From contig OY727102.1 of the NCBI GenBank assembly GCA_963402885.1, positions 11,222,001 through 11,286,000 of the forward strand: DNA of 64,000 nucleotides. Direction: 5' to 3'. This document shows positions 3,711-64,000 of the stretch, in pieces; positions within the stretch are counted from its first letter, which is position 1, and each line of letters starts with the position of its first letter. Below the pieces are notes generated by a model, which was not told where the DNA came from, did not search any database, and saw nothing but the letters and a program-made list of their open reading frames with translations. The DNA comes from Antedon bifida. Its lineage: Eukaryota; Echinodermata; Crinoidea; Comatulida; Antedonidae. Made by a program: the position numbers and the translations under genes.

Positions 3711-3820
3711 AGGTGATCATTTAGAATAAAATGATCACCTATTGTTATTGTATAAAATCTTTATTAGGTGATCATTTAGAATAAAATGATCACCTATTGT
3801 TATTGTATGAAATCTTTATT
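3711..3820 (+). repeat. Two tandem A-family 5' heads (55 bp each)
   Basis: Units 3711-3765 and 3766-3820 each begin with arm AGGTGATCATTT, a short loop and arm AAATGATCACCT, then a TTGTTATTGTA box and CTTTATT. The outer unit reads TATAAAATC after the box and the inner one TATGAAATC, so they are different head types rather than a simple duplication. Only the inner one is next to a body; in the nesting model the outer one belongs to an older, interrupted element. Confidence 0.9.
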
Positions 3821-6225
3821 TTTTTTTTTTTTTTTTTTATTCTTTCTGTACACTTTTTGTGTAACAAATATCTCAAAAAGTTGAATGGCAATGATCACAA
3901 AAATTACACAATGTCTTTCAAATACTTTAACTTAGACATAATAAGCTTTTCAGCGTGATCACTCATCCGTGACGTCATTTATACGCCATTTTGTGAAATC
4001 ACAATATCAATCATATCTTTACTATTCATTATCACATATTAATGAAATTCACTACAAGTAAACTTCATGTCAAGGTAAAAATATTAGAAAATAAAAACTT
4101 GCGCGTTTCAAGGTCATGCGCGTGAAATCGCGCGTTAAAAATTAAAAAAGCCCAAAATTAAGTTTTGATCAATTTAGAGCATGAATCAGGCCATTTGCGT
4201 GTTTCAAAAAATTACTGCGCAAAAAAAATATTTTGCGTGCGCAATACTTAAAAAGCGTAAAAAATGCGAATTTTTTTTACAAATCGCATTCTACTCACCA
4301 TCCTTAGTACATTCACCAAATTTGAGTTAGTTCCGACTTAAAATAACGCTATACGAGCAGGATAAAAATGACAAAATGCGTAAATTAATTGCATCAAAGT
4401 GCTGAAAATGGTGAAAAATAATGCATTTTTAAAATGAAAATAATTCTTTAGAATGCAAGATGACCCCCAATTTTTTTAACTTATTCTGGAAGCCATTAAG
4501 TTGTAGATATGAATTCATGTACACATTTTACGTACAAAATGTTTTGACGTCATCAAATGGCCACTTGAATTTAAAAATTAGGATTTTTTATCTTTTTGTG
4601 TAGAATATCACATTCAACAGAGCGCATCTTGTTTATGTGTGCTCGAATTTCACACAAATTTCAGTATGTGCTTGCTTAATTAATTATCTTTATCATGAGT
4701 TGACACTATTTTCTTTTTGATGACGTCATCATGCGTAAAAACTTGAATAACGTAGGCCGTGTAATTTCACCTTCGCAGTAAATTTGAATATCTTACAGCT
4801 CTTCAGAATTGAAGGTTACCTTGATGATTATAATTTGTTATGAAAGCTGATGAAATGTAGATATGAATTCATATAAAAATCAAGCCTATCGGATGTTGTG
4901 ACGTTAACATATGGCCAGTTGAAGTGAAAAAGTAGTTTTTTCATATTTTTCGTCAAGGTAAAAATATTAGAAAATAAAAACTTGCGCGTTTCAAGGTCAT
5001 GCGCGTGAAATCGCGCGTTAAAAATTAAAAAAGCCCAAAATTAAGTTTTGATCAATTTAGAGCATGAATCAGGCCATTTGCGTGTTTCAAAAAATTACTG
5101 CGCAAAAAAAATATTTTGCGTGCGCAATACTTAAAAAGCGTAAAAAATGCGAATTTTTTTTACAAATCGCATTCTACTCACCATCCTTAGTACATTCACC
5201 AAATTTGAGTTAGTTCCGACTTAAAATAACGCTATACGAGCAGGATAAAAATGACAAAATGCGTAAATTAATTGCATCAAAGTGCTGAAAATGGTGAAAA
5301 ATAATGCATTTTTAAAATGAAAATAATTCTTTAGAATGCAAGATGACCCCCAATTTTTTTAACTTATTCTGGAAGCCATTAAGTTGTAGATATGAATTCA
5401 TGTACACATTTTACGTACAAAATGTTTTGACGTCATCAAATGGCCACTTGAATTTAAAAATTAGGATTTTTTATCTTTTTGTGTAGAATATCACATTCAA
5501 CAGAGCGCATCTTGTTTATGTGTGCTCGAATTTCACACAAATTTCAGTATGTGCTTGCTTAATTAATTATCTTTATCATGAGTTGACACTATTTTCTTTT
5601 TGATGACGTCATCATGCGTAAAAACTTGAATAACGTAGGCCGTGTAATTTCACCTTCGCAGTAAATTTGAATATCTTACAGCTCTTCAGAATTGAAGGTT
5701 ACCTTGATGATTATAATTTGTTATGAAAGCTGATGAAATGTAGATATGAATTCATATAAAAATCAAGCCTATCGGATGTTGTGACGTTAACATATGGCCA
5801 GTTGAAGTGAAAAAGTAGTTTTTTCATATTTTTCGTCAAAGTAATACACATTTCAAAGAGCGCGCACAGCACTTCTACGTGCCAAATTTTTTTCCAAATC
5901 TTATATTTTTTTGCTCAATTAATTATCTTTCGAAATTGTCATCTTAAAGTTTTGTTTGATAACGCCATCATTCGAAAAAATTAGAACATGATGTGTGTCC
6001 CGTAATTTCACCTATGCTACACTGTATATAGATATACAGTATATACTGTACATATTGTATATGGCATATAGGCACAACTCAGCACTATAAGCGTATAATA
6101 GGATGGCATACATCAACATTTTCCGATCGTATGTTAACGTACGTGCATGTTTAAAAAAAATTAATTTCAGTAAAATGATAAAAATGATCACCTATAATTC
6201 GTCAAAGTGACGAATTAAATTCTAG
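3766..6225 (+). mobile_element. Non-autonomous Helentron copy A1 (A family, alpha subfamily)
   Basis: The copy runs from its head through a T tract (3821-3838) and body to CTAG at 6222-6225. The 3' end has the ATIR AATGATCACCT, then a hairpin with arms AATTCGTCA and TGACGAATT around AAG. An internal 883-bp tandem duplication (4069-4951 and 4952-5834) makes it longer than its relatives; without it the length is about 1577 bp, as for A2. The body matches A3 and A17 most closely. It has no coding capacity and would need enzymes in trans. Confidence 0.9.
4069..5834 (+). repeat. 883-bp tandem duplication inside A1
   Basis: 4069-4951 and 4952-5834 look identical over every stretch compared. The join lies where GTCAAGGTA at the start of the unit meets the related GTCAAAGTA at its natural end, so the event used a few bases of microhomology. 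The high identity means it is recent, or an assembly error. Confidence 0.88.
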
Positions 6226-6245
6226 TTATTATTTTTTTTATTTTT

Positions 6246-6415
6246 GGTTATCCGCAACGAAGTTGCAGGATAACCTCTTGTGATTCTACGAAATCATCTT
6301 TTTATTAGTTATCCGCATTCAGCGGATAACTCCTTGTAACTGTCCTGTTTCATCATCTTTTTTTTAGTTATCCGCTTAGTAGCGGATAACTCCTTGTTAT
6401 TGTAGTGGATCAATA
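6246..6415 (+). repeat. Three tandem B-family 5' heads
   Basis: Hairpins lie at 6246-6275, 6307-6331 and 6366-6391, about 60 bp apart, each followed by a TTGTNAYTGT-like box. The first has arms GGTTATCC/GGATAACC. The second and third have AGTTATCCGC/GCGGATAACT, with the outer base pair changed on both sides. The loops all differ. Only the third adjoins body B1; the first two are surplus and pair by type with headless bodies B6 and B3 downstream. Confidence 0.88.
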
Positions 6416-7956
6416 TTTTTTTTTTTCTGTATTATTCTTATTTCTTTCCCGTTTTTTTGTGGCTCACGTATCTCTAAAATGTGTAAACATAACATTTCAT
6501 AACTTTTACAACATGTGGGCATTTACGTGAAGTTGTGCACCTCCTATTTTGAGTGACGTCAGAGTTGCGCAACGTGACTTACGCGCGATTTTATGATTTT
6601 TAATGATTGATCATAGCTTAAAAACCAAGCGTAATTTTTTTTTTACCCTTTATGAAAATTTAAGTCATATCAAGGGCAAACTTTTAGTTAACTAAAAATG
6701 GCGTGTTTTACAAGAAGTTACGCGCGCACGCGCATTTAAAATTTTAAAATGCGTAAAATTAATTTCTAATCAACTTTTTACGCCATTCATGACATTTTGC
6801 GCATGTCAAAATTTCCCACGCGCGCGAACAATTTTACGCGTGCAGTGCGCACGCAGCATGAAAATCATGTTTTTTTCTATTAAATTGTGATTTTCCAGCC
6901 TTTCCTAGTCATTTTTAAAAAGATTGACATCATTTCAAATTAAAATGACGTCATACGTACACGTTGATTTAGACCATTTGCATGCGTTTTAGTTGCAAAA
7001 GTTACAAAATATTGTCAAAATTATGCCTATTTTGAATCTATTATAGCTCCTCAGGATCAACCGTTACCCCCGAGTTTTTTAACTTAATATGTAAGCAGAT
7101 ATGTTGTAGATATGAATTCATGCAGAATTTTTTCCTTACGGATGTTGTGACGTCATCGTATGGCCACACAAATGTAAAAAATAGGATTTTTGTCTCTTTC
7201 GTTATTGCTCATCACATTCAATGGAGCACATCACGCTTATCCGTCTTCCATTTTCTCCGAGATTTTAATATTATCTAGGTCAATCAACTATCTTTCGCAT
7301 GAGTTAAAAATATTTTAATTTTTATAACGTCATCATGCCTAAAAATTTAAATTACGTGGGTCATTAATTTTATCTTTACAGTAAATTTTAATCTGTTATA
7401 GCTCGTAAGAATAAAATGTGATAATCACGATTAAAACGTTTTCTGGAAGCTATTGGATTGTAGATACGAATTCATGTGAACATTTTGTCAATCAGATGTA
7501 GTGACGTCATCATATGGCCAGTTGAATAAAAAAAGTCGTATTTTAATATTTTGCGTCATAGTTCATCACATTTAAAAGAGCGCGCATCTATATTTTACGT
7601 ATCCAAATTTCTTCTACACGCTAATATGTTGTTGCTGAGATAATATCCTTCCGAAATTGGTATTTTAGTGTTTCATTTTGATACCGTCGCCATGTTAAAA
7701 AATGGAATAAATGGCGGGTCCCGTAATTTCACCTATTCTACACTGTATGTAATATGTATACAGATTATACTGTTTATACTGTATATACTATATGACACAA
7801 AATTGACAGAATTCAGCACTAACAACATATCATATTCTTCAGATCAGGTCATAATGCCATAATCTTTTTCTGGGTGCAAAATTTTAACGTATGACGTGCA
7901 CGTGGCGTTTGTCGTGCGGATAACTAACTCGTCAAAGTGACGAGTTTCATGTCTAG
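6366..7956 (+). mobile_element. Non-autonomous Helentron copy B1 (B family)
   Basis: The 3' end carries GCGGATAACT, matching the altered outer pair of its own head, then the hairpin 7926-7946 (AACTCGTCA/TGACGAGTT) and CTAG at 7953-7956. The body has the dimer of internal units. Its first half resembles B5, while its last 300 bp resemble B3, so it may be mosaic. A 64-codon open frame inside it is not considered a gene. Confidence 0.88.
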
Positions 7957-7958: not shown

Positions 7959-9172
7959 GGTTATCCGCACTTGGCGGATAACCCCTTGTTATTGTCAGGA
8001 TCTTTTTTTTTTTTTTTTTTTTTCTATGTTATTCTTCTTTCTTTCCCAGAATTTTGTGTCACGTGTATCTCAAATTCTGATCAACATTACATCGTATAAC
8101 TTTGTCAGAAGATTTACCTCTATCTGTAGAAGTGGAGGACAGTTCGTTTTTTTACTTTAGAGTCGCGCAGCGTAAGCTACGCGCGATTTTATGAATTTTG
8201 CGTATTTAACATAGACTAAAAACCAAAAGTCATTTTGTAATGACATTTGGTGAACATTTAAGTCATATCAAGGGCAAACTTTCTATGGATTAAAAATGGC
8301 ATGTTTCACAGAAAGTTACGCGCGCACGCGCGTTTAAAATTTCAAAATGCGAAAAATCAACTTCTAATCAACTTTCTACGCGTTTCATGTCATTTTGAGC
8401 ATTTCAAAAATTCCCACGCACGCGCAATAAATTTACGCGCGCGTGCGCATGTAGCGCAAAAATATAATTTTTTCGCGTGATTTATGTTTTTTCAGCCTTT
8501 TCTAGTAATTTTACCAACTTTTAAACAATTTCGACTTAAAATTATGTCATACGAGCATGTGGAATTGGATAATTTGCGTGCGTTTTTGATGAAAAAGTTC
8601 AAAAATTCGTCAAAATTATGCCTTTTTTTAAACAGTCATAGATTCTAAACTACATGATGAAGTTTATTTTGTATTACATATTATGGAAGTTGATGAGTTG
8701 TAGATATAGAATCATGCATCGATATGGCTAACTGGACATAGTGACGTCATCGTATGGCCACTCGAATATAAAATGGCGGATTTTTGTCTCTTTCGTCATA
8801 GCTCATCACATTTAATAGAGCGCATCTCCACTTATCCGTATTCCATTTTACCCCATTTTTTTATATTGTCTAGGCCAATCAATTATCTTTCGCATGATAT
8901 ACCATTTTTTAAATTGTGATGACGTCATCATGTCCAAAAGCGTCAATAACTTGGGCCACTTATTTTCACCAATTCTTCACCGTATGTAGAACGTATACAA
9001 TATATAGTGTAAACTGATTATACTTAGACGTGACACAAAATAGAGAGCACACTAACATTTTTTCAATGGCATAATCGTTTTTCTCTCTGCGCAATATTCT
9101 AACGTATGACGTGCACGTGGCGTTTGCTCTGCGGATAACCTAACTCGTCCGTAGTGACGAGTTCAAATCTAG
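7959..9172 (+). mobile_element. Short non-autonomous Helentron copy B2 (B family, one internal unit)
   Basis: The head hairpin is 7959-7983 and starts two bases after the CTAG of B1. The 3' end has GCGGATAACC, a hairpin with a variant loop (9142-9163) and CTAG at 9169-9172. At 1214 bp it is more than 300 bp shorter than the other B copies and has only one of the two internal units, as expected after recombination between the units. B4 has the same structure. Confidence 0.88.
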
Positions 9173-10708
9173 TTTTTTTTTCTGTATTCTTCTTTCTTTC
9201 TGTCATTTTTGTGTCACACGTAACTCAAAAACGTGTAAACATAACATTTTATAACTTTGTCAACATGTGGGCATTCACGTGAAGTTGTGCACCTGCTATT
9301 GTGAATGACGTCAGAGTTGCGCAACGTGACTTACGCGCGTTTTTATGAATTTCGCGTATTTACCATAGATCGAAAACCATATAACATTTTTATTTGAAAC
9401 TTAGAAAAAGTTTAAGTTATATCTTGCGCTAACTGACTGTGGGAAAAAAATGACATGTTTTACACAAAGTTACGCGTGCACGCGCGTTTGAAATTTCAAA
9501 ATGCGAAAAATCAATTTCTAATCAACTTTCTACGTGTTTCATGTCATTTTGAGCATGTAAAAAATTCCCACGCGCGCGCATTTTTTTACGCGCGCGGTGC
9601 GCATGTAGCGTTGAAAACAATTTTTTCCCCGTGATTTATGTTTTTCCAGCCTTTTCTAGTAATTTTACCAACTTTTGAACAATTTCGATATAAAATTACG
9701 TCATACGGGCACGTCGAATTGGATAATTTACGTGCATTTTTTATTAAAAAGTTCAAAAAATCGTCAAAATTTGTCAAAATTATGCCCTTTTTTAAACAGT
9801 CGTAGTTCCTAAACTAAACGGTGAAAGTTATTTTTTTTGCATATTCTGGAAGTTGATGAGTTGTAGATTTTGGATCATGCGTTAATATGGCTAACCGGAC
9901 ATTGTGACGTCACCGTATGGCCACGCGAATATAAAATATAGGATTTTTGTATCTTTCATCATAGCGCATGACATTTAATAGAGCGCATCTCCAATTATCT
10001 GTTTTCCATTTTTACCCAAATTTTTATATTATCTAGGTCAATCAACTATCTTTCGCATGAGTTAAAAATATTTTAATTTTTATGACGTCATCATGTCTAA
10101 AAATGTAAATAATGTGGGTCACTTATTTTCATCTTTACAGTAAATTTCAATCTGTTATAGCTCGTCAGAATAAAACGTGATAATCATGATTAAAACGTTT
10201 TCTGGAAGCTATTGGATTGTAGATACGAATTCATGTGAACATTTTGCCAATCGGATGTTGTGACGTCATCATATGGCCAGTTGAATAAAAAAAGTCGTAT
10301 TTTCATATTTTGCGTAATAGTTCATCACATTTAAAAGGGCGCGCATCTATATTTTACGTATTCAAATTTCTTCTACACGGTAATATGTGGTTGCTGAGAT
10401 AATGTCCTTCCGAAATTGCTGTCTTAGTTTTTCATTTTGATACCGTCGCCATGTTAAAAATAGGAATAACCGGGGGTCCCGTAATTTCACCTATTCTACA
10501 CTGTATGTAATATGTATACAGATTATACTGTTTATACTGTATATACTATATGACACAAAATTGACAGAATTCAGCACTAACAACATATCATATTCTTCAG
10601 ATCAGGTCATAATGCCTTTTTCTGTGTGCAAAAGTCTAACGTATGACGTGCACGTGGCGTTTGTCGTGCGGATAACTAACTCGTCAAAGTGACGAGTTAC
10701 ATGTCTAG
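9173..10708 (+). mobile_element. Headless non-autonomous Helentron copy B3 (B family)
   Basis: The body starts directly after the CTAG of B2 with a T run and has no 5' hairpin. The 3' ATIR is GCGGATAACT and CTAG lies at 10705-10708. The ATIR type agrees with the surplus head at 6307, which also ends in a T run, so this body may be the continuation of that interrupted element. Two internal units are present. Confidence 0.85.
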
Positions 10709-11928: not shown

Positions 11929-13452
11929 TTCATCTTTATTCTTCTTTCTTTCCCGGATTTTTGTTGCAGCTATATCTCAAATTTTTGTAGACATAACTTT
12001 GTATAACTTTGTCATAAGATTGACCTGTAGCTGTAGATGTGCAGGAAACTTCGTTATATGACGTTAGAGTCGCGCAGCGTAAGTTACGCGCGATTTTACG
12101 AATTTCAATGATTGATCATAGATTATAAACCAAAAGTCATTTTTTATTGACACTTACTGAAAATTTAAGTCATATCAAGCGCAAACTTTCTATGGATTAA
12201 AAATGGCATGTTTCACAAGAAGTTACGCGCGCACGCGCATTTAAAATTTCAAAATGCGCAAAATTAATTTCTAATCAACTTTCTACGCTGATCATGACAT
12301 TTTGAGCATGTCAAAAATTCCCATGCGCGCGAAAAAAATTACGCGTAAGGTGCGCACGGAGCATGAAAATCATGTGTTTTTCTCTTGAATTATGATTTTA
12401 CAGCCTTTCCTAGTCATTTTAAAAAAGATTGACATAATTTCCAATTAAAATGATGTCATACGAACACGTTGATTTAGACCATTTGCGCGCGCTTTAGTTG
12501 CAAAAGTGACAAAATGTTGTCAAAATTATGCCTATTTTGAATCTATTATAGCTCCTCAGGATCAACCGTTACCCCCAATTTTTTTAATTTAATATAGAAG
12601 CAGATATGTTGTAGATATGAATTCATGCAGAATCTTTACCCCTCGGATGTTATGACGTCATCGTATGGCCACACGAATGTAAAATATTGGATTTTTGACT
12701 GTTTCGTTATTGCTCATTACATTAAATAGAGCGCATCTCGCTTATACGTATTCCATTTCCTCATATATTTTAATACTGTCTAGGTCAATCAACTATCTTT
12801 CGCATGAGTTAAAAATATTTTAATTTTTATGACGTCATCATGTCTAAAAATGTAAATAACGCGAGTCACCTATTTTCATCTTTACAGTAAATTTCAATCT
12901 GTTATAACTCGTCAGAATAAAAAGTGATAATCATGATTAAAACGTTTTCTGGAAGCTATTGGATTGTAGATACAAATTCATGTGAATATTTTGCCAAACA
13001 GATGTTGTGACGTCATCATATGGCCAGTTGAATTCAAAAAGTCATATTTTCATCTCTTGCGTAAAAGTTCATTGCATTTAAACGAGAGCGCATCTCACTT
13101 TTACGTGCTCAAAATTCTTCAAATTTGTATTAATGTAATTATTTAGATAATTATCTTCAAAAATTGTTATCTTTATATGTCAATTTGATGACGTCATCTT
13201 GTTAATAATTGGATTTAAAAGATGGGTCTCGAAATTTCGTCTATGCTGCACTGTATATAACATACAGTGTATTCTGTAAATACTGTAATATGCTGTATGC
13301 TACAAAATAGGTACAATTCAGCACTGTAAAAATATTTAATTCATGTCATAAGATGGTATAATAATTGTCGAAGTTCATATATTTTAAACGTATGTGCATA
13401 TTGCGTTTGCGCGGATAACCCGAACTCGTCAAAGTGACGAGTTCAAATCTAG
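11929..13452 (+). mobile_element. Headless non-autonomous Helentron copy B5 (B family)
   Basis: It starts at the CTAG of B4 without a hairpin. The 3' end reads GCGGATAACC, then CGAACTCGTCA and its partner arm, with CTAG at 13449-13452. It is one of only two headless bodies, with C2, for which no surplus head of the right type is left over upstream. The first internal unit is close to that of B1. Confidence 0.85.
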
Positions 13453-14964
13453 TTTGGCTTCTTTCTTTCTGTATGATTTTTGTGGAACGCTTTTCTCTAA
13501 AACTTGCAAACATAACATTTTGTAACTTTCTCAACATATCGTCATGCACATGAAGATGTGCTGCGAAGCTTTTCATGACGTTTACAATTGCGCAACGTGA
13601 CTTACGCGTGATTTAACGATTTCCTCGTATTCAACATAGGTCGAAAACCAAATAACATTTCAAATTGAAACTTTCCAAAAGTTTAATTTATATCATGCGC
13701 TAACTTTCTGTTGAAACAAAATTGCGTGTTTTACACAAAGTTACGCGTGCACGCGCATTTAAAATTTCAAAATGCGCAAAATTAATTTCTAATCAACTTT
13801 ATACGCGTTTCATGTCGTTTTAAGCATGAAAAAAATTCCCACGCGTGCGCAAATTTTTACGTGTGCGGTGCGCACGTAGCATTGAAAACATTTTTTTTTT
13901 GCGTGATTTATGTTTTTCCAGCCTTTTCTAGTAATTTTACTAAATTTTAAACAATTTCGACTTAAAGTTACGTCATACAAGCACGTCGAATTGGACAATT
14001 TGCGCGCATTTTTGATGAAAAAGTTCAAAAATTCGTTAAAAATATGCCTTTTTTTAAACAGTCGTAATTTCTAAACTACACGGTCAACTTTTTGTGGATG
14101 ACATATTCTGGAAGTTGATGAGTTGTAGATATCGGATCAGGTATTAATATGGCTAACCGGACATTGTGACGTCATCGTATGGCCACACGAATATAAAATT
14201 TAGGATTGTTGTATCTTTCGTCATAGCTCATCACATTGAATAGAGCGCATCTCCACTTATTCGTTTTCCATTTTCACCCCGATTTTGATATTGTCTAGGT
14301 CAATCAACTATCTTTCGCATGAGTTAAAAATATTTTATTTTTTATGACGTCATCATGCCTAAAAATTTAAATTACGTGTGGCATTAATTTCATCTTTACA
14401 GTAAATTTTAATCTGTTATAGCTCGTAAGAATAAAATGTGATAATCACGATTAAAACGTTTTCTGGAAGCTATTGGATTGTAGATACGAAATCATGTAAA
14501 CATTTTGCCAATCGGATGTTGTGACGTCATCATATGGCCAGTTAAATAAAAAAGGTCGTATTTTCATCATTTGCGTCATAATTCATTACATTTAAAAGAG
14601 CGCGCATCAATATTTCACGTATTCAAATTTCTTCTACACGTTAATATGCTGTTGCTGAGATAATTTTCTTCCGAAATTGCTACCTTCGCGTTTCATTTTA
14701 AAACCGTCAACATGTTAAAAATTGCAAAAAATAGCGGGTCCCGTAATTTCACCTATTCTACACTGTATGTGATATGGATACAGATTATACTGTGTATACT
14801 ATATATGAATCTAAATAATAAAATTCAGCAATAACAACATATCATATTCTTCAGGTCATACGTGAACACTTCCTTTTGTCCTCAACCTATCCCCTTAATG
14901 TTGATGTTGCACCACTTGCGCGGCGGATAACCAAACTCGTCAAAGTGACGAGTTACATGTCTAG
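13453..14964 (+). mobile_element. Headless non-autonomous Helentron copy B6 (B family, B7/B8-like)
   Basis: The body begins after the CTAG of B5 and is of the same subfamily as B7 and B8 (shared GTATGATTTTTGTG near its start and ACTTCCTTTTGTCCTCAACC near its end). The ATIR is GCGGATAACC and CTAG lies at 14961-14964. The surplus head at 6246 has the B7/B8 type of sequence after its hairpin (ACGAAATCATC), so it is the best candidate for the missing 5' end of this copy. Confidence 0.85.
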
Positions 14965-16543: not shown

Positions 16544-16549
16544 TTTTTT

Positions 16550-18164
16550 GGTTTTCCGCAACGAAGTTGCAGGAAAACCTCTTGTGATTGTACGAAATCA
16601 TCATCATCATCATCTTTTTTGTCATCTTCTTTCTTTCTGTATGATTTTTGTGTAACGCTTTTCTCTAAAACTTGCAAACATAACATTTTTTTAACTATGT
16701 TGACATTTTGACATTTATGTAACGTCGTCAAGCGAAGCTTTTCATGATGCTTACAATTGCGCAACGTGACGTACGCGCGATTTAACGATTTTCTCGTATT
16801 TAACATAGCTCGACAACCAAATAACATTTCAACTTGAAACTTTGCAAAAGTTTAATTTATATCATGCGCTAACTTTCTGTGGAAAAAAAATTGCGTGTTT
16901 TACACAAAGTTACGCGCGCACGCGCATTTAAAATTTCAAAATGCGCAAAATTAATTTATAATCAATTTTCTACGCGTTTCATGTCGTTTTAAGCATGTCA
17001 AAAATTCCCACGCGTGCGCACATTTTTACGTGTGCGGTGCGCACGTAGCATTGAAAACGTATTTTTTTCGCGTGATTTATGTTTTTCCAGCCTTTTCTAG
17101 TAATTTTACCAAATTTTAAACAATTTCGACTTAAAGATACGTCATACGAGCACGTCGAATTGGACAATTTGCGCGCGTTTTTTATGAAAAGGTTAAAAAA
17201 TTCGTTTAAAATATGCATTTTTTTAAACAATCGTAATTTCTAAACTAGACGGTCAACTTTTTGTGGATGACATTTTCTGGAAGTTAATGAGTTGTAGATA
17301 TCGGATCATGTATTAATATGGCTAACCGGACATTGTGACGTCATCGTATGGCCACGCTAATATAAAATTTAGGATTTTTGTATCTTTCGTCATAGCTCAT
17401 CACATTTAATAGAGCGCATCTCCACTTATCCGTTTTCCATTTTCACCCAAATTTTGATATTGTCTATGTCAATCAACTGTCTTTCGCATGAATTAGAAAT
17501 ATTTTAATTTTTTTGACGTCATCATTCCTAAAAATTTAAATTACGTGTGGCATTAATTTCATCTTTACAGTAAATTTTAATCTGTTATAGCTCGTAAGAA
17601 TAAAATTTGATAATCACGATTAAAACGTTTTATGGAAGCTATTGGATTGTAGATACGAAATCATGTGAAAATTTTGCCAATCGGATGTTGTGACGTCATC
17701 ATATGGCCAGTTAAATGAAAAAAGTCGTATTTTCATCTTTTGCGTCATAATTCATTACATTTAAAAGAGCGCGCATCAATATTTCACGTATTCAAATTTC
17801 TTCTAGACGTTAATATGTTGTTGCTGAGATAATTTCCTTCCGAAATAGCTACCTTTGCATTTCATTTTAAAACCGTCAACATGTTAAAATTTGCAATAAA
17901 TAGCGGGTCCCGTAATTTCACCTATTCTACACTGTGTGATATGGATACAGATTATACTGTGTATACTATATATGAATCGAAATAATAGAATTTAGCAATA
18001 ACAACATGTCATATTCTTCAGTTCAGGTCATAATGCCAACGTGAACACTTCCTTTTGTCCTCAACCTATCCCTTAATGTTAAAAGGTACGTCGTTACACG
18101 TTCATGTTGCACCACTTGCGCGGCGGAAAACCAAACTCGTCAAAGTGACGAGTTACATGTCTAG
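16550..18164 (+). mobile_element. Non-autonomous Helentron copy B7 with compensated termini
   Basis: The head hairpin 16550-16579 has arms GGTTTTCCGC and GGAAAACC where other B heads have GGTTATCC/GGATAACC. The 3' ATIR at 18123-18132 is GCGGAAAACC, changed in the same way. The 3' hairpin is 18134-18154 and CTAG is 18161-18164. The body is close to B6 and B8, which keep the usual bases. The coordinated change at three separate places is the clearest covariation in the window. Confidence 0.92.
18123..18164 (+). promoter_or_regulatory. 3' terminus of B7: ATIR, hairpin and CTAG
   Basis: In order this holds the ATIR GCGGAAAACC (18123-18132), the hairpin 18134-18154 with arms AACTCGTCA and TGACGAGTT around AAG, a 6-base linker and CTAG. 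In Helitrons and Helentrons the 3' hairpin is taken as the signal that ends rolling-circle transfer. The layout is the same at the 3' end of every copy here, with AATTCGTCA/TGACGAATT in family A. Confidence 0.88.
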
Positions 18165-18166: not shown

Positions 18167-18276
18167 AGGTGATCATTTAGAATAAAATGATCACCTATTG
18201 TTATTGTACAAAATCTTTATTAGGTGATCATTTAGAATAAAATGATCACCTATTGTTATTGTACAAAATCTTTATT
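18167..18276 (+). repeat. Two solo A-family heads
   Basis: Units 18167-18221 and 18222-18276 are both of the TACAAAATC type. They are followed not by an A body but by a T-rich spacer and the head of B8. They are therefore heads whose bodies must lie elsewhere. In the bracket matching, 18222 pairs with the headless A5 body at 25924, and 18167 stays unmatched within the window. Confidence 0.88.
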
Positions 18277-18291
18277 GTTGTTTTTGTTATT

Positions 18292-19940: not shown

Positions 19941-19950
19941 TTTTTTTTTT

Positions 19951-22650: not shown

Positions 22651-22687
22651 AATAATTAAATAAAAGGATTTATTTGCTTATTACACT

Positions 22688-44920: not shown

Positions 44921-44921
44921 T

Positions 44922-48062: not shown

Positions 48063-48177
48063 AGGTGATCATTTAGAATAAAATGATCACCTATTGTTAT
48101 TGTACAAAATCTTTATTGTTATTAGGTGATCATTTAGAATAAAATGATCACCTATTGTTATTGTACAAAATATTATT
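48063..48177 (+). repeat. Two tandem A-family heads
   Basis: Hairpins are at 48063-48092 (TACAAAATC type) and 48124-48153 (TACAAAATA type). The inner one serves A10. The outer ends CTTTATTGTTATT, and the headless A12 body at 51249 begins TTATTCTTC, so joining the two would restore a normal head-body junction. Confidence 0.88.
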
Positions 48178-51248: not shown

Positions 51249-52760
51249 TTATTCTTCTTTCTGTACACTTTTGTTTAACAAATATCTCAAAAAGTTGAAT
51301 GGCAATGATCACAAAAATTTCACAATGTCTTTTAAATACTTTAACTTAGTCATAATAAGCTTTTCAGCGTGATCACTCAACCGTGACGTCATTAATACGC
51401 GATTTTGTGAAATCACACTATCAATCATATCTCCATAACTCTTTATCACATATCAATAAAATTCACTATACGTAAACTTCAGGTGAAGGATAAAAATATT
51501 AACAAATAAAAACTTACATTTTTCAAGGTCATGCACGTGAAATTGCGCGTTAAAAATTTAAAAAGCTCCAAATTAAGTTTTGATCAATTTAGAGCATGAG
51601 TTAGGCCATTTGCGTGTTTCAAAAAATTACTGCGCAAAAATGCGTTTTTGCGTGCGCAATTCTTAAAATGCGTAAAAAATATGAATTTTTTTTACAAATC
51701 GTATTCTACTCACCATCCTTAGTACATTCACCAAATTTGAATCTGTTCCGACTTAAAATAACGCTATACGAGCAGGTTAAAAATGACAAAATGTGCACAT
51801 TAATTGTACAAAAGTGCTCAAAATAGTAAAAAATAAGGCCTTTTTAAAATTAATATAACTCTTCAGAATGCACGATGACCCCCAATTTTTTAACTTATTC
51901 TGGAAGCCAATGAGTTGTAGATATAAATGTATATACACATTAGACGTACAAAATGGTATGACGTCATCATTTGGCCACATGAATTTTTAAAATAGGGTTT
52001 TTTCCCCTTTTGTAATGGACCACCATATTCAACAGAGCGCAACTCGCTTATCTGTGATCGATTTTCTTTAAATTTTTAATATATTCTACCTCAACCAATT
52101 ATGTTACTTATGAGTTGCCAATATTTTTATTTGGATGATGTCATCACGTCTTAAAATTTAAATAACGGTGGTTACGTAATTTCACCTACAAGGTATACTT
52201 GAATACCTTACAGCTCTTCTGAATTAAAGTTGACCTTGATGTTTATAACTTATTATGAGAGCTGGTGAAATGTAGATATGAATTATTATAAAAATTAAGC
52301 CTATCGGATGTTGTGACGTTATCATATGGCCAGTTGAAGTTAAAAAGTAGTTTTTTCATCTCTTTCGTCAAAGTTATACAATTTTTAAAGAGCGCGCACC
52401 GCCCTTCTACGTGCCAAATTTTCTTCCAATTGTTATATTTTATTGCTCAATTCATTATCTTTCGATATTGTTATCCACAAGTTTATTTTGATAATGTCAT
52501 CAGTGCCGAAAAATTAGAACATGATGTGTGTCCGTAATTTCACCAATGCTACACTGTATATAGATATACAGTATATACTGTACATAATGTATATGGCATA
52601 TAATAGGAACAGCACTATAGTATAACCGTATAATAGGATGGCATACATCAACATTTTATGATTGTATTTTAACATACGTGCATGTTTAAAAAATATTAAT
52701 GTCAATAAAATTATAAAAATGATCACCTATAATTCGTCAAAGTGACGAATTAAATTCTAG
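51249..52760 (+). mobile_element. Headless non-autonomous Helentron copy A12 (A family, gamma subfamily)
   Basis: It starts TTATTCTTCTTTCTG after the CTAG of A11 and ends at CTAG 52757-52760. It is nearly identical to A13, A14 and A18, whose heads, where present, are of the TACAAAAT type. The surplus head at 48063 is of that type. Confidence 0.9.
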
Positions 52761-52762: not shown

Positions 52763-52933
52763 AGGTGATCATTTAGAATAAAATGATCACCTATTGTTAT
52801 TGTACAAAATCTTTATTATTAGGTGATCATTTAGAATAAAATGATCACCTATTGTTATTGTACAAAATCTTTATTATTAGGTGATCATTTAGAATAAAAT
52901 GATCACCTATTGTTATTGTACAAAATCTTTATT
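52763..52933 (+). repeat. Three tandem A-family heads
   Basis: Hairpins start at 52763, 52821 and 52879, exactly 58 bp apart, all of TACAAAATC type. Only the third is next to a body (A13). Two headless gamma bodies, A18 and A19, lie further right, with no other unused heads of this type between. Confidence 0.9.
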
Positions 52934-56045: not shown

Positions 56046-57228
56046 GAGAAATTGTTTTTGTACAAAAAAAATGTTTCTTCGCAATTTCTTTCTGTACAGA
56101 TTTTGTGTAACAAATATCTCAAAAAGTTTAATGTCAATGATTACCAAAATTTCAGAATTTCTTTCAAATACTTTAACTAAGTCCTAATAAGCTTTTCAGC
56201 GTGATCACTCATCCGTGACGTCATTTATACGCCATTTTGTGAAATCACATTATCAATCATATCTCCATAATTAATTATCAGATATTAATGAAATTCACTA
56301 CACGTAAACTTCAGGTCAAGGGTAAAATTATTAGCAAATAAAAACGCACGCGCACGTAGGGTCATGCGCGTGAAATCGCGCATTAAAAATTTAAAAAGGT
56401 CAAAATTACGTTTTGATCAATTTAGAGCATGAATTAGGCCATTTGCGTGTTTTAAAAAATTACTGCGCAAAAACACGTTTCTGCACGTGCGTACTTAGAA
56501 AGCGTAAAAAATAAATGTTTTTTTGTACAAATTGCATTCTACTCATCTTCCTTGGTAGATTCACCAAATGTGAGTCCATTTCGATTTAAAATAGTGCTAT
56601 ACGAGCACGTTAAAAATGACAAAATGCGCACATTAATTGTACAAAAGTGCTAAAAATGGTAAAAATTAAGGCCTTTTTAAAAATAATATAACTCTTCAGA
56701 ATGGCAGGTGACCCCCAATTTTTTTAACTTATTATGGAAGCCAATAAGTTGTAGATACAAATGTATATACACATTAGACGTACAAAATGGTATGACGTCA
56801 TCAAATGGCCACTTGAATTTAAAAATTAGGAATTTTTTTCTTTTTGTGTAGGTTATCGCATTCAATAGTGCGTATCTCCGTTATTTTAGCCCGATTTTCG
56901 CTAAAATTTTAGTATGTACTTGTTAAATTATTATCTTTATCATGAGTTGCCACCTTTTCATTATGATGACGTTATCATGCGTAAAAATTTGAATAACATG
57001 GTGCGATTAATTTCAACTTCAGCGTATATTTGAATATCTCGCAACTCTTCAGAATTGAAGGTTACCTTGATGATTATAAATTATTATGAAAGCTGTTGAA
57101 ATGTAGATATGAATTCATATAAAAACCAAGTCTATCGGATGTTGTGACGTTATCATATGGCCAGTTGAAGTTAAAAAGTAGTTTTTTCATCTTTTGCGTC
57201 AAAATTATACAAATTTCAAAAAGCACGC
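56046..57228 (+). mobile_element. 3'-truncated Helentron copy A15 with a different 5' hairpin
   Basis: The start 56046-56080 is an imperfect hairpin (GAGAAATTGTTTTT and partner). The body ends inside the second internal unit, at AAAAGCACGCAT, and runs straight into the second half of an A head. The 3' hairpin and CTAG are missing, so this copy could not move by itself. Confidence 0.85.
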
Positions 57229-57330
57229 ATTTAGAATAAAATGATCACCTATTGTTATTGTATGAAATCTTTATTAGGTGATCATTTAGAATAAAATGAT
57301 CACCTATTGTTATTGTACAAAATCTTTATT
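57229..57330 (+). repeat. One partial and one complete A-family head
   Basis: 57229-57275 lacks the first arm of its hairpin and is of TATGAAATC type. 57276-57330 is complete and of TACAAAATC type. A C-family head follows at 57334. In the nesting model the complete head belongs to A16 and the partial one to A17; the subfamily of A17 agrees. Confidence 0.87.
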
Positions 57331-57333
57331 ATT

Positions 57334-58948
57334 GGTTATCCGCCACAAGCGGATAACCTTTGTTATTGTACGTGTTTCTTTTTTTTTTTATTATTCTTCT
57401 TTCTTTCTCAGATTTTGTGCACGCGTTTTCTCTTCAACGTGTTAACATAACATGTTGTAACTTGGTCAACATTTAGACATTTAACTGAAGATGTTCAGCC
57501 AAGCTTTTGGACGCTGTCAGATCCGCGTAGCGTAAGTCACGCGCGATTTTCTGAAAATCTTAAATCGGTCATAACTTCGAAACCGATAAATATTTTTTAA
57601 CGAAATTTTCAGCCACGTTTTCTTCACATCAATGGCTAACTTTTGGAATGTTTAACAAATTTTTGGAGACTAGAAAGTTTTCGCGTAAATTGCGTTTGAA
57701 ATATTTTACTCTTCTTATTTTGTGCACGCTGTTTCTCTTCAACGTGTAAACATAATATGTTGTAACTTGTTCAGCATTTAGACATTTTACTGAAGTTGTC
57801 CAGCCAAGCTTTTTGACGATGTCAGAGCCGCGTAGCGTAAGTTACGCGTGATTTTCTGAAAATCTTAAATCGGTTATAACTTCGAAACAAACGAATATTT
57901 TTTAACGTCATTTTCAGCCACGTTTGCTTCACATCAATAGTTAACTTTTTTAACGCTACCGCAATTTGTAACGTTAGAAAGTGCGCGCGTAAATGGCGTT
58001 TGAAATTTTAAAATGCTCCAAATCAATTTCTGATTAAATTAGAGCACGATTCAGGTCATTTTAAGCGTTTAAAAAATTGCCACTGTTGCGCACATTTTTA
58101 CGCGCGCACGGCGCAGGGAACACGTATGAGCATTTCTTTTACACGATTTGTGTTTTTAAATCTTCGGTTAACAATTTTACGTTATTTTATTCACTTTTCA
58201 ACTTGAAATGGCGTTCTACGAGCACGTTAAACATGACAGGTTGCGCACGAAAACGTCAACAAATTGTGAAAATGTTCCAAAATATGTCTACTTTTAAAAA
58301 TGAAACAGTTCATCAGAATGCAAGGTTACCCCATTTTTTTATTTTATTTTCTTGCAGAGTATGAATCACAGGTCTAATTTATAATAGTCTTGAATGTTAA
58401 AAAGTGTTTGATGGCTACATTATTTGCATATTAAATGTAATTTTTGAAATATTTATCATCAAACAAACATAAACATATTCAAAGAGTAAAACAATAAACA
58501 TAACGTTTATCTTTTTTCTTTACATGTTAATATATTAAACTTGAAAGTATGCACTTTCATAATATGTCACTGTTTAAAATGTGTGAAGATTTCATCATAG
58601 TAAACATTATGATTTAAGTTCGATATGTAATAATCAACTTGCATCGAGGGGGTTCACGACATACCGAATGAACGAGGATTCTTTCTTCGGATTTTCTTCA
58701 CCAGGTGCTGATATGGCTCGATGTGTAGTGCAACCGACTTTGGTATCACAGGTACCGGGTTCGAATCCCATCACGGGAAAACAATCAAAAAAGGATTTAT
58801 TTGGTTATTACACTTAAAGGGCAGTTTTAATTTTGAATAGGCTACTTTTTTGGAAAAGTCATAATTGAGAAGTACTTTAATACGCAAGATACGTTTTGTT
58901 GCGGGCGGATAACCAAACTCGTCCTCAAGTGACGAGTTTAAGATCTAG
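57334..58948 (+). mobile_element. Non-autonomous Helentron copy C3 (C family)
   Basis: The head hairpin is 57334-57358 and CTAG 58945-58948. It differs from C1, 37 kb away, at only a few positions per hundred or fewer, and like C1 sits directly after an A head. It is complete, with the tRNA-like module. An open frame of 95 codons is identical in C1 and C3 but lacks any recognisable product. Confidence 0.9.
58704..58779 (+). repeat. tRNA-like module in C3
   Basis: 76 nt with the B box GGTTCGAATCC, as in C1. The A-box region has the TAGTGC form shared with C2. It is not a functional tRNA for the same structural reasons. Confidence 0.68.
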
Positions 58949-60474
58949 TTGTTATTCTTCTTTCTGTACACTTTTTGTGTAACAAATATCTCAAAAAGTT
59001 GAATAGCAATGATCACAAAAATTACACAATGTCTTTCAAATACTTTAACTTAGACATAATAAGCTTTTCAGCGTGATCACTCATCCGTGACGTCACGTAT
59101 ACGCCATTTTGTGAAATCACATTATCAATCATATCTCCTTAATTCATTATCACATATTATTGAAATTCACTACACGTAAACTTCAGGTCAAGGGTAAAAA
59201 TATTAGCAAATAAAAACTCGCACGTTTCAAGGTCATGCGCTTGGAATCGCGCGTTAAAATTTTAAAAAGCTCAAAATTACGTTTTGATCAATTTAGAGCA
59301 TGAATTAGGCCATTTGCGTGTTTTAAAAAATTACTGCGCAAAAACACGTTTTTGCGCGTGCGTACATAGAAAGCGTAAAAAATACCAATTTTTTGTACAA
59401 ATTGCATTCTACTCATCTTCCTTAGTACATTCACCAAATTTGAGTCCATTTCGACTTAAAATAGTGCTATACGAGCACGTTAAAAATGACAAAATGCGCA
59501 CATTAATTGTACAAAAGTGCCAAAAATGGTAAAAAATAAGGCCTTTTTAAAATGAATATAACTCTTCAGAATGGAAGATGACCCCCAATTTTTTTAACTT
59601 AATATGGAAGCAAATAAGTTGTAGATATAAATGTATATACAAATTAGACGTACAAAATGGTATGACGTCATCAAATGGCCACTTGAATTAAAAAATTAGT
59701 AATTTTTATCTTTTTGTGTGGGTTATCACATTCAATAGAGCGCATCTCCGTTATTTGAACCCAATTTTCGCACAAATTTTAGTATGTGCTTGCTCAATTA
59801 ATTATCTTTCTCATGAGTTGTCAACATTTTTATTTTGATGACGTCATCACGCGTAAAAACTTGAAAAACCAAGGTCGTGTATTTTCAGCTACACCATACA
59901 TTTGAATATCTTACAGCTCTTCAGAATTAAAGGTGACCTTGAAGATTATAATTTATTATTAAAGCTGATGAAATGTAGATATGAATTCATATAAAAATTA
60001 GGCCTATCGGATGTTGTGACATTATGAAATGGTCAGTTGAAGTTAAAAAGTAGTTTTTTTCTCTCTTTCGTCAAATGTATACAAATTTCAAAGAGCCCGC
60101 ATTGCGCTTCTACGTGTCAAATGCTCTTCCAATTCTTATATTTATTTGCTCAATTCATTATCTTTCGAAATTGTCATCTTCGAGTTTATTATGATAATTC
60201 CATCATACCAAAAAATTAGAACATGATGTGGGTCCCGTAATTTCACCTATGCTACACTGTATATAGATATACAGTATATACTGTACATATTGTATATGAC
60301 ACATAATAGGTACAACTCAGCACTATAAGTGTATATGCATCATGTCATAGGATGGCGTACATCAACTTTTTACGATCGCATGTTAACGTACATGCATGTT
60401 TAAAAAATGTTAATTTCATTAAAATGATAAAAATGATCACCTATAATTCGTCAAAGTGACGAATTAAATTCGAG
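58949..60474 (+). mobile_element. Headless Helentron copy A16 with an altered 3' end
   Basis: The body starts TTGTTATTCTTC after the CTAG of C3. ATIR and 3' hairpin are normal, but the last four bases are CGAG (60471-60474) in place of CTAG. The next copy begins right after them, so the change probably came after that junction formed. Confidence 0.88.
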
Positions 60475-61997
60475 TTTTTTTTATTTTTTTTTTTATTCTT
60501 TCTGTACACTTTTTGTGTAACAAATATCTCAAAAAGTTGAATGGCAATGATCACAAAAATTACACAATGTCTTTCAAATACTTTAACTTAGACATAATAA
60601 GCTTTTCAGCGTGATCACTCATCCGTGACGTCATTTATACGCCATTTTGTGAAATCACAATATCAATCATATCTTTACTATTCATTATCACATATTAATG
60701 AAATTCACTACAAGTAAACTTCAGGTCAAGGTAAAAATATTAGAAAATAAAAACTTGCGCGTTTCAAGGTCATGCGCGTGAAATCGCGCGTTAAAAATTT
60801 AAAAAGCCCAAAATTAAGTTTTGATCAATTTAGAGCATGAATCAGGCCATTTGCGTGTTTCAAAAAATTACTGCGCAAAAAAAATATTTTGCGCGTGCAA
60901 TACTTAAAAAGCGTAAAAAATGCGATTTTTTTTACAAATCGCATTCTACTCACCATCCTTAGTACATTCACCAAATTTGAGTGAGTTCCGACTTAAAATA
61001 ACGCTATACGAGCAGGATAAAAATGACAAAATGCGCAAATTAATTGCATCAAAGTGCTGAAAATGGTGAAAAATATTGCATTTTTAAAATGAAAATAATT
61101 CTTTAGAATGCAAGATGACCCCCAATTTTTTTAACTTATTCTGGAAGCCATTAAGTTGTAGATATGAATTCATGTACACATTTTACGTACAAAATGTTTT
61201 GACGTCATCAAATGGCCACTTGAAATTAAAAATTAGGATTTTTTATCTTTTTGTGTAGAATATCACATTCAACAGAGCGCATCTTGTTTATGTGTGCTCG
61301 AATTTCGCACAAATTTCAGTATGTGCTTGCTTAATTAATTATCTTTATCATGAGTTGACACTATTTTCTTTTTGATGACGTCATCATGCGTAAAAACTTG
61401 AATAACGTAGGCCGTGTAATTTCACCTTCGCAGTAAATTTGAATATCTTACAGCTCTTCAGAATTGAAGGTTACCTTGATGATTATAATTTGTTATGAAA
61501 GCTGATGAAATGTAGATATGAATTCATATAAAAATCAAGCCTATCGGATGTTGTGACGTTAACATATGGCCAGTTGAAGTGAAAAAGTAGTTTTTTCATA
61601 TTTTTCGTCAAAGTAATACACATTTCAAAGAGCGCGCACAGCGCTTCTACGTGCCAAATTTTTTTCCAAATCTTATATTTTTTTGCTCAATTAATTATCT
61701 TTCGAAATTGTCATCTTAAAGTTTTGTTTGATAACGCCATCATTCGAAAAAATTAGAACATGATGTGTGTCCCGTAATTTCACCTATGCTACACTGTATA
61801 TAGATATACAGTATATACTGTACATATTGTATATGGCATATAGGCACAACTCAGCACTATAAGCGTATAATAGGATGGCGTACATCAACATTTTCCGATC
61901 GTATGTTAACGTACGTGCATGTTTAAAAAAAATTTATTTCAGTAAAATTATAAAAATGATCACCTATAATTCGTCAAAGTGACGAATTAAATTCTAG
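60475..61997 (+). mobile_element. Headless Helentron copy A17 (A family, alpha subfamily)
   Basis: It starts with T runs and ends at CTAG 61994-61997. It is nearly identical to A3 and A1, the subfamily that carries TATGAAATC heads. Confidence 0.9.
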
Positions 61998-63510
61998 TTC
62001 TTCTTCTTTCTGTACACTTTTGTTTAGCAATTATCTCAAAAAGTTGAATAACAATGATCACAAAAATTTCACAATGTCTTTCAAATACTTTAACTTAGCC
62101 ATAATAAGCTTTTCAGCGTGATCACTCAACCGTGACGTCATTAATACGCGATTTTGTGAAATCACACTATCAATCATATCTCCATAACTCTTTATCACAT
62201 ATCAATAAAATTCACTATACGTAAACTTCAGGTGAAGGATAAAAATATTAACAAATAAAAACTTACATTTTTCAAGGTCATGCACGTGAAATTGCGCGTT
62301 ACAAATTTAAAAAGCTCCAAATTAAGTTTTGATCAATTTAGAGCATGAGTTAGGCCATTTGCGTGTTTCAAAAAATTACTGCGCAAAAATGCGTTTTTGC
62401 GTGCGCAATTCCTAAAATGCGTAAAAAATATGAATTTTTTTTACAAATCGTATTCTACTCACCATCCTTAGTACATTCACCAAATTTGAGTCTGTTCCGA
62501 CTTAAAATAACGCTATACGAGCAGGTTAAAAATGACAAAATGCGCACATTAATTGTACAAAAGTGCTAAAAATGGTAAAAAATAAGGCCTTTTTAAAATT
62601 AATATAACTCTTCAGAATGCACGATGACCCCCAATTTTTTTAACTTATTCTGGAAGCCAATGAGTTGTAGATATAAATGTATATACACATTAGACGTACA
62701 AAATGGTATGACGTCATCATTTGGCCACATTAATTTTTAAAATAGGGTTTTTTCCCCTTTTGTAATGGACCACCATATTCAACAGAGCGCAACTCGCTTA
62801 TCTGTGATCGATTTTCTTTAAATTTTTAATATATTCTACCTCAACCAATTATGTTACTTATGAGTTGCCAATATTTTCATTTGGATGATGTCATCACGTC
62901 TTAAAATTTAAATAACGGTGGTTACGTAATTTCACCTACAAGGTATACTTGAATACCTTACAGCTCTTCTGAATTAAAGTTGACCTTGATGTTTATAACT
63001 TATTATGAGAGCTGGTGAAATGTAGATATGAATTATTATAGAAATTAAGCCTATCGGATGTTGTGACGTTATCATATGGCCAGTTGAAGTTAAAAAGTAG
63101 TTTTTTCATCTCTTTCGTCAAAGTTATACAATTTTTAAAGAGCGCGCACCGCCCTTCTACGTGCCAAATTTTCTTCCAATTGTTATATTTTATTGCTCAA
63201 TTCATTATCTTTCGATATTGTTATCCACAAGTTTATTTTGATAATGTCATCAGTGCCGAAAAATTAGAACATGATGTGTGTCCGTAATTTCACCAATGCT
63301 ACACTGTATATAGATATACAGTATATACTGTACATAATGTATATGGCATATAATAGGCACAGCACTATAGTATAACCGTATAATAGGATGGCATACATCA
63401 ACATTTTCTGATTGTATTTTAACATACGTGCATGTTTAAAAAATATTAATGTCAATAAAATTATAAAAATGATCACCTATAATTCGTCAAAGTGACGAAT
63501 TAAATTCTAG
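61998..63510 (+). mobile_element. Headless Helentron copy A18 (A family, gamma subfamily)
   Basis: It starts TTCTTCTTCTTTCTG after the CTAG of A17 and ends at CTAG 63507-63510. It is nearly identical to A12-A14. It pairs with the surplus head at 52821 in the bracket model. Confidence 0.9.
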
Positions 63511-64000
63511 TTGTTATTATTATTATTCTTCTTCTTCTTCTTTCTGTACACTTTTGTTTAGCAATTATCTCAAAAAGTTGAATAACAATGATCACAAAAA
63601 TTTCACAATGTCTTTCAAATACTTTAACTTAGCCATAATAAGCTTTTCAGCGTGATCACTCAACCGTGACGTCATTAATACGCGATTTTGTGAAATCACA
63701 CTATCAATCATATCTCCATAACTCTTTATCACATATCAATAAAATTCACTATACGTAAACTTCAGGTGAAGGATAAAAATATTAACAAATAAAAACTTAC
63801 ATTTTTCAAGGTCATGCACGTGAAATTGCGCGTTAAAAATTTAAAAAGCTCCAAATTAAGTTTTGATCAATTTAGAGCATGAGTTAGGCCATTTGCGTGT
63901 TTCAAAAAATTACTGCGCAAAAATGCGTTTTTGCGTGCGCAATTCTTAAAATGCGTAAAAAATATGAATTTTTTTTACAAATCGTATTCTACTCACCATC
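63511..64000 (+). mobile_element. Headless Helentron copy A19, cut by the window end
   Basis: It starts TTGTTATTATTATTATTC and matches A13, A14 and A18 as far as it goes. The array continues beyond the window. Its start joins the end of head 52763 to give the same tract as intact A13. Confidence 0.88.

What the first reader, a model, noticed from the sequence alone, without database searches (positions are those of the whole stretch)
3711..64000. Heads and headless bodies balance like nested brackets: elements inserted inside one another just behind the 5' head
There are surplus heads (3711, 6246, 6307, 18167, 18222, 19886, 48063, 52763, 52821, 57229, 57276) and headless bodies (B3, B5, B6, C2, A3, A5, A12, A16-A19). 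Reading left to right and closing the latest open head of the right family pairs most of them without crossing: 6307-B3, 6246-B6, 19886-A3, 18222-A5, 48063-A12, 57276-A16, 57229-A17, 52821-A18, 52763-A19. Head type agrees with body subfamily in these pairs: TATGAAATC with A3 and A17, TACAAAATC with A12, A18 and A19, the ACGAAATC head with B6, and an AGTTATCC head with a GGATAACT body in B3. Only B5 and C2 lack a head; 3711 and 18167 are left open. The target is the T-rich tract behind the head, and its strand bias would also explain why all copies face the same way. Element families inserting serially into their own 5' junction is, to my knowledge, not a described arrangement.
Basis: partly seen in the sequence, partly recalled or inferred. 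Interest (0 to 1): 0.9.

Follow-up and report, generated by a model that had tools for sequence, protein, structure and literature searches.

The report
Rolling-circle transposons nested like brackets
In this animal genome, a family of rolling-circle transposons keeps inserting into a T-rich spot just behind the front end of its own earlier copies, so that copies stack inside one another like nested brackets, and the order of insertion can still be read from the DNA.

Summary
Confirmed and extended. The window holds Helentron-type rolling-circle transposons: an ORF of 2725 aa with Rep, PIF1 helicase, OTU and endonuclease domains, and short non-autonomous copies of the HINE kind. Heads are 5' palindromes; tails are palindromes ending in CTAG. 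The window has 11 surplus heads and 11 headless bodies.

I predicted in writing that heads 3711 and 18167 close right of the window. They can: a TACA-type headless body, one extra, then a TATA-type body ending at 72751, followed by host DNA. The 69-kb array reads as one outermost element, seven levels deep.

In six loci free of further elements on both fetched sides all 24 surplus heads can be closed (27 headless). Stack order matches head class in 30 of 41 cases; permutation means are 8-20. One joined junction, absent from all fetched loci, occurs uninterrupted 28 times in the genome.

T-richness alone looks insufficient. Self-insertion at a Helitron 5' end was already proposed in fungi (PMC5148889): new variant, not new kind. 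Misses: orphan headless bodies, one wrong subtype, one inconclusive age test, no single-head control.

The parts
3711..3759 (+). Outermost surplus head, family A (TATAAAATC); read as closing at A24, which lies right of the window (71258-72751 in continued coordinates)
3766..6225 (+). Complete element A1 (head TATGAAATC) with an internal duplication
6246..6306 (+). Surplus head, family B (GGTTATCC, ACGAAATC); best partner by body type B6 13462-14964
6307..6365 (+). Surplus head, family B (AGTTATCC); partner B3 9193-10708 (tail GGATAACT)
6366..7956 (+). Complete element B1, inserted behind head 6307
7959..9172 (+). Complete element B2
9193..10708 (+). Headless body B3 (closes 6307)
11945..13452 (+). 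Headless body B5, orphan (no free head of its type)
13462..14964 (+). Headless body B6 (closes 6246 by body type)
16549..18164 (+). Complete element B7: head GGTTTTCC matched by tail GGAAAACC, a paired change of the two ends
18167..18221 (+). Surplus head A (TACAAAATC); closes right of the window at A22 (68206-69706) or A23
18222..18290 (+). Surplus head A (TACAAAATC), by stack order that of the autonomous Helentron A5
19886..19950 (+). Surplus head A (TATGAAATC); partner A3 22837-24336
21576..22824 (+). Headless body C2, orphan
22837..24336 (+). Headless body A3 (closes 19886)
25933..41747 (+). Headless autonomous Helentron A5; first 1.27 kb and last ~0.2 kb match short A copies
31398..39575 (+). 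RepHel-OTU-endonuclease ORF, 2725 aa (Helitron_like_N, PIF1, OTU, Exo_endo_phos)
48063..48123 (+). Surplus head A (TACAAAATC); partner A12 51258-52760
51258..52760 (+). Headless body A12
52763..52820 (+). Surplus head A (TACAAAATC); partner A19 (63541 onward, tail at 65044 outside the window)
52821..52878 (+). Surplus head A (TACAAAATC); partner A18 62007-63510
57221..57275 (+). Truncated surplus head A (TATGAAATC); partner A17 60499-61997
57276..57333 (+). Surplus head A (TACAAAATC); partner A16 58961-60474; joined junction equals an intact copy elsewhere
57334..58948 (+). Complete element C3, innermost of the deepest chain
58961..60474 (+). Headless body A16
60499..61997 (+). Headless body A17
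62007..63510 (+). Headless body A18
63541..64000 (+). Headless body A19 (continues to 65044)
44921..46471 (+). D-junction unit A8, follows A7 tail with CTAGTG; second half of an apparent composite (others: 49692-51248, 56045-57220)

Best explanation
The array is a nest of Helentrons and their non-autonomous HINE relatives. Each copy carries a 5' palindrome (head) followed by a T-rich tract of roughly 10-60 bp, then the body, then a 3' palindrome ending in CTAG. New copies insert at TT sites in the tract behind the head of a resident copy, in the same orientation. This parts the resident's head from its body and brings in a fresh head and tract that serve as the next target. Repeated, this builds a stack: heads pile up on the left in order of insertion, and bodies close on the right in reverse order. 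Shown here: position, orientation, bracket order, clean joining. Inferred: that RepHel bound to, or unwinding at, a resident head exposes or tethers the neighbouring tract, so that an incoming intermediate joins there. Some nests and read-through dimers then appear to move as units.
For: Written prediction on unseen DNA right of the window met, with one extra headless body. Six closed loci (no further A, B or C unit in what was fetched on either side, left flanks from 285 bp up): surplus/headless 1/1 (L030), 1/1 (C7-), 3/3 (L032), 3/3 (C10b), 5/5 (six-head locus), 11/14 (window array); all 24 surplus heads can be closed at family level. Stack-order class match 30 of 41 versus permutation means 8.2-19.9, none of 5000 reaching 30; FIFO 14 of 42. 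Subterminal repeat agrees in 15 of 16 strict LIFO pairs with a B head on top and a readable B tail; in intact copies 30 of 31. Joined junctions: 18 A pairs, summed edit distance to the nearest of 16 intact copies 97 versus 135.5 for random re-pairing, P=0.0002; two exact matches; two loci with different insertion points give one identical 89-letter string, of which a 42-base piece occurs uninterrupted 28 times genome-wide, backwards control 0. Fifty pairs of heads within 110 bp were found; all are 50-75 bp apart. Inner copies are more alike than outer copies in 10 of 10 pairs among five loci. Of the first 100 listed A heads (of 1506), 19 lie 55-75 bp from another same-strand head and 0 within 110 bp of an opposite-strand one.
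Against: Three of 14 headless bodies of the window array have no head (B5, C2, one of A22/A23). C7+ has one more AGTTATCC-type headless body than expected (25314 or 31618), and its parse needs the assumption that unit 11453 is two elements fused by a deletion. L031 and L033 do not parse cleanly. The third prediction failed on subtype: a TATA-type body closes a TATC head. Family agreement within loci is not significant (P=0.06). The worst joined junctions are 15, 15, 11 and 10 edits from any intact copy in the set; the first two are the TATC pairs, for which the set held no intact copy. The singleton-mutation age test was inconclusive, 9 versus 6 with 1 tie in 16 same-group pairs. Nearest-neighbour assignment of exact head type is right in only 32 of 49 intact copies (family with subTIR 44 of 49). 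At least one element sits inside a body in inverse orientation (L036). Some loci share a composite and are not independent. Head tethering itself was not tested.
Confidence: 0.92

Rival explanations
1. Heads were multiplied by tandem duplication or slippage, and headless bodies are separate 5'-truncated insertions.
For: Several head arrays are identical repeats (52761-52936, 58 bp, 3.0 copies at 100%).
Against: Predicts no link between surplus heads and headless bodies; instead counts match in five of six closed loci, types follow stack order, and joined halves give sequences that occur uninterrupted elsewhere.
Confidence: 0.03
2. Insertion prefers any T-rich site; the tract behind the head is hit only because it is T-rich, with no role for the head.
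For: HINEs are known to prefer T-rich sites and TT (PMC4067079, passages; PMC7492417, passages); host DNA beside the outermost elements is also T-rich.
Against: 63 T-rich runs in 66 kb of bodies of the window array took no A, B or C element, while 11 of 11 parted heads were hit in the short tract; if all T-rich runs were equal the chance would be about 2e-7, or 3e-5 for T8 runs (both use tracts as they are after insertion). About 606,000 T-rich runs are estimated genome-wide from 125 kb of host DNA, against 1506 A heads (exact 24-mer), yet 19 of 100 heads sit behind another: roughly 77-fold. Local hopping could account for part of this.
Confidence: 0.25
3. Rolling-circle read-through or concatemer insertion made the tandem units, and nests spread as composites.
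For: A10-A11 and A20-A21 are 96.6% identical over 3078 bp across the D junction; the B1-in-B3 nest recurs at eight loci and inner and outer divergence are close among C7, C13 and C10a.
Against: As a sole cause it does not make surplus heads with matching headless bodies; in W and C10b the outer copies are much more diverged than the inner ones, which fits separate insertion.
Confidence: 0.05
4. Short-range (local) hopping explains the clustering.
For: Close relatives lie within the window array, e.g. A14 and A19 99.7%, but few other loci were sampled for A copies.
Against: Does not explain why the same short tract is hit; the genome-wide nearest-relative search did not complete.
Confidence: 0.2

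Closest known systems
Helentron / HINE (DINE-1-like) rolling-circle transposons (PMC4067079, passages read)
   Same: RepHel with endonuclease; subterminal inverted repeats, palindromes at both ends, TT/T-rich insertion without clear target change, microsatellites in some copies, tandem clusters
   Different: No serial self-nesting readable as a stack is described in the passages read
FoHeli Helitrons of Fusarium (PMC5148889, passages read)
   Same: Self-insertion proposed to create multiple 5' termini; [quoted passage not shown]
   Different: There multi-headed elements with a single 3' terminus are explained as transposed chimeras; here each surplus head in six closed loci can be matched to a body left in place, and nests reach seven levels in an animal
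Nested maize Helitrons (PMC3288121, passages read)
   Same: Nested copies give elements with several termini
   Different: A hypothesised path for one family of plant Helitrons rather than a site-specific series
[quoted passage not shown]
   Same: Back-to-back copies, in maize read as consecutive insertions
   Different: Side by side, not inside the resident's 5' junction

Membership tests
Helentron (autonomous) | Single ORF with Rep (HUH) and PIF1-like helicase | tested here: met
   Helitron_like_N 7e-33, PIF1 5e-27; HIH and Walker A motifs; Helraiser 7lcc among matches, best stretch in the helicase part
Helentron (autonomous) | Endonuclease domain; OTU common (OTU as a feature: recalled) | tested here: met
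   Exo_endo_phos 2516-2706 and OTU 509-631
Helentron (autonomous) | Helentron-type Rep motifs including the catalytic tyrosines | tested here: inconclusive
   HUH found; my tyrosine patterns gave no clear match
HINE (non-autonomous) | Subterminal inverted repeats and palindromes at both ends | tested here: met
   Head and tail hairpins; head/tail subTIR agree in 30 of 31 B copies
HINE (non-autonomous) | Insertion at TT in T-rich DNA, no clear target duplication | tested here: met
   TT left of the heads; T after each of 34 tails, TT after 28; whether one TT belongs to the element or is a duplication is undecided
HINE (non-autonomous) | Ends shared with an autonomous Helentron | tested here: met
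   A5 shares 1.27 kb at the 5' side and the 3' end with A copies
Canonical Helitron | 5' TC and insertion between A and T (3' CTRR is shared: CTAG) | tested here: not met
   Insertion T|T, 5' palindrome starts AGG or GGTTATCC/AGTTATCC

The most novel reading that the evidence does not exclude
The family uses its own 5' junction as its preferred landing site: transposase bound at a resident head directs new insertions into the adjoining tract, so each insertion supplies the next target and arrays grow from the inside, leaving a readable stack of insertion history.
Probability: 0.4. Interest if true: 0.8.

Novelty: new variant of a known kind. Interest (0 to 1): 0.66.

Why it matters
How Helitron-like transposons choose targets is poorly known (my knowledge). 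A family that targets its own 5' junction gives a natural record of many insertion events in fixed order, lets insertion sites be read almost to the base, and separates a transposase gene from its own 5' end (head 18222 lies 7.7 kb from the body of A5). It also explains surplus 5' termini and headless copies that annotation would otherwise call truncated.

Tried and rejected
Tandem head duplication plus truncation: rejected on counts, order and joined junctions. Open heads 3711 and 18167 as a failure of the bracket reading: settled by fetching the flank. Age by singleton mutations: inconclusive, perhaps because copies in one array share parental changes; the inner/outer comparison was made later. 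Head type by nearest neighbour is weak (32 of 49) and is reported as such. D junctions as ordinary heads: rejected, in the five cases seen they directly follow a complete A tail. Genome-wide counts of nested and tail-adjacent heads, more joined junctions and the local-hopping search were asked for but did not complete. Single-head control loci were not obtained.
Full report
What it is. The window lies in an animal genome of 315.6 Mb (C15:11222001-11286000). Its only ORF over 300 aa (31398-39575) has Helitron_like_N, PIF1, DUF6570, OTU and Exo_endo_phos domains. The closest protein found is from the feather star Antedon mediterranea (91% over residues 1300-2260), so the host is probably a related crinoid (inference). 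The repeats are Helentron/HINE copies: a 5' palindrome, a T-rich tract, a body of about 1.5 kb (1.1-1.55 kb in the B and C families), and a 3' palindrome ending CTAG (CGAG in one), with T after each of 34 tails. The autonomous copy A5 spans 25933-41747 and shares its first 1.27 kb and its 3' end with the short A copies; its head, at 18222 by stack order, lies 7.7 kb away.

Observation. The 11 surplus heads and 11 headless bodies exist as described. Read with a stack, the deepest chain is 3711 > 18167 > 52763 > 52821 > 57229 > 57276 > C3, seven levels.

First prediction. Before looking right of 64000 I wrote that a TACA-type and then a TATA-type headless body must follow, then host DNA. Found: complete A20, D unit A21, then headless A22 and A23 (both TACA type) and A24 with the tract usual behind TATA heads, tail at 72751, then host DNA; the motif scan found no further A, B or C head or tail in 70 kb to the right or 20 kb to the left, and the BLAST parse only one short D-like match at 109800. 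One headless body is in excess. By nearest headed neighbour A24 resembles A4, a copy with the same tract but an atypical TATG head, so the automatic class calls it TATG.

Other loci. L030 is the minimal case: two heads, a body, a headless body, host. A locus with six heads (TATA, TATC, four TATA) is followed by one headed body with its D unit and five headless bodies; the unusual body stands fourth, where the TATC head requires it, and the locus ends in host DNA. C10b has three of each, all agreeing in subterminal repeat; C10a has five pairs, all agreeing, plus two headless bodies at the cut left edge whose heads would lie outside the fetched stretch. Second prediction, C7: the first two closers right of 13447000 were of the predicted repeat type. 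Third, L032: number right (3/3), subtype wrong. Fourth, C7 right of 13457000: two of three predicted closers appeared in order with the predicted tract remainder, the third would lie beyond the fetched end, and one extra headless body is unexplained. L031 and L033 contain unusual heads and short, fused or over-long bodies and were not resolved.

Statistics. Of 44 headless bodies given a class, 41 met an open head, 37 agreed in family and 30 in class; permutation means for class 8.2, 19.0 and 19.9 for three kinds of shuffle, none of 5000 reaching 30; first-in-first-out 14 of 42. Family agreement is beyond 5000 global shuffles but not significant within loci (P=0.06). Class counts by locus: W 9 of 13, six-head 4 of 5, L030 1 of 1, L031 0 of 1, L032 0 of 3, L033 0 of 1, C7+ 5 of 6, C7- 1 of 1, C10a 5 of 5, C10b 3 of 3, L004 1 of 1, L005 1 of 1. 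TATC bodies cannot score, since the pool held no intact TATC copy. L003 and L006 were left out because they lay in the other orientation; L036-L038 came later. The shuffles do not allow for relatedness between loci.

Joining. Eighteen A-family head/body pairs were joined at the TT. Summed edit distance to the nearest of 16 intact copies is 97 against 135.5 for random re-pairing (P=0.0002); single distances run from 0 to 15. A16 and one six-head pair equal intact copies exactly. The TATC pairs from two loci were cut at different points yet give the same 89-letter string. A 42-base piece of it, absent from the window and all 38 fetched loci, occurs 28 times in the genome, with 0 for the backwards control. 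I did not read those 28 places.

Site choice. Of head pairs within 110 bp, 50 were found, all 50-75 bp apart. In the window array, bodies hold 63 T-rich runs and none is interrupted by another A, B or C element, while heads plus tracts hold 21 such runs. Of 91 units with both ends in the loci, 88 have lengths of 1.1-1.7 kb; the exceptions are A1 (internal duplication), A5 (autonomous) and one over-long body in L033. L036, not in that count, shows one body interrupted by an inverted B7-type copy. Of the first 100 listed A heads (C1, exact 24-mer, 1506 in all), 19 follow another same-strand A head, in 12 arrays (8 of two, 3 of three, 1 of six), and none lies within 110 bp of an opposite one. From T-richness alone about 0.25% would be expected (rough, since it rests on 125 kb of host DNA and one definition of T-rich). 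I infer that the head itself, through bound RepHel or local unwinding, helps to choose the site; this is untested.

Age. Inner B1 copies are 98.1-99.3% alike between loci and their outer B3 copies 91.0-97.7%, inner above outer in 10 of 10 pairs of five loci (of eight where this nest was seen), as expected if the inner came later. These pairs are not independent, and close values among C7, C13 and C10a suggest that part of the recurrence is one nest moving as a unit. The singleton test was inconclusive (9 to 6, 1 tie).

Prior work. Passages of PMC5148889 propose self-insertion as the source of multiple 5' termini in fungal Helitrons; PMC3288121 proposes nested maize Helitrons as the source of multiple termini; PMC12477314 quotes preferential insertion near other Helitrons; PMC4067079 and PMC7492417 give the T-rich preference of HINEs. 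PMC2374699 (passages) and PMC2267711 (passages) describe DINE-1 structure and adjacent Helitrons. Searches listed nothing that by title or abstract start describes stack-like serial nesting; two searches listed only part of their hits, and most subscription papers are not held. Hence a new variant of a known kind.

Noticed in passing
window 3843-6225: A1 holds a near-perfect internal tandem duplication of about 0.88 kb.
   Followed up: partly
window 44921, 49692, 56045; 66641 in continued coordinates; six-head locus 2318: D junctions (CTAGTG then a weak palindrome) follow a complete A tail in all five cases seen; A10-A11 and A20-A21 are 96.6% identical over 3078 bp, so a two-tailed composite seems to move as a unit.
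   Followed up: partly
window 16549-18164; C10a 5288-11722 and 11724-18120: A base change in the 5' subterminal repeat (GGTTTTCC) is matched by the complementary change at the 3' end (GGAAAACC); head and tail agree in 30 of 31 B copies, which suggests that the two ends must match.
   Followed up: partly
window, L003-L006, L036, C7, C10a, C10b: The same nest, B1 inside a B3-type element, recurs at eight loci; some nests may travel as composites.
   Followed up: partly
window 57200-57269: A15 lacks its 3' part and head 57229 its first bases: one deletion may have joined them.
   Followed up: no
L036 3505-5130: An inverted B7-type copy interrupts a B3-type body, an exception to tract-only insertion.
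   Followed up: partly
L031 470, L033 340: A further A-like head type with TACTTGCATT in place of the usual ending, followed by B-type sequence.
   Followed up: no
window 1-800: A large AT-rich inverted repeat (arms of about 350 bp, read by eye), perhaps another transposon.
   Followed up: no
window 33741-34337 and 30444-31211: A 54-bp repeat inside the RepHel ORF and a minisatellite of about 90 bp before it.
   Followed up: no
window 31398-39575: The ORF also matches Pfam Herpes_teg_N (PF04843) near its N-terminus, as do many relatives listed.
   Followed up: no
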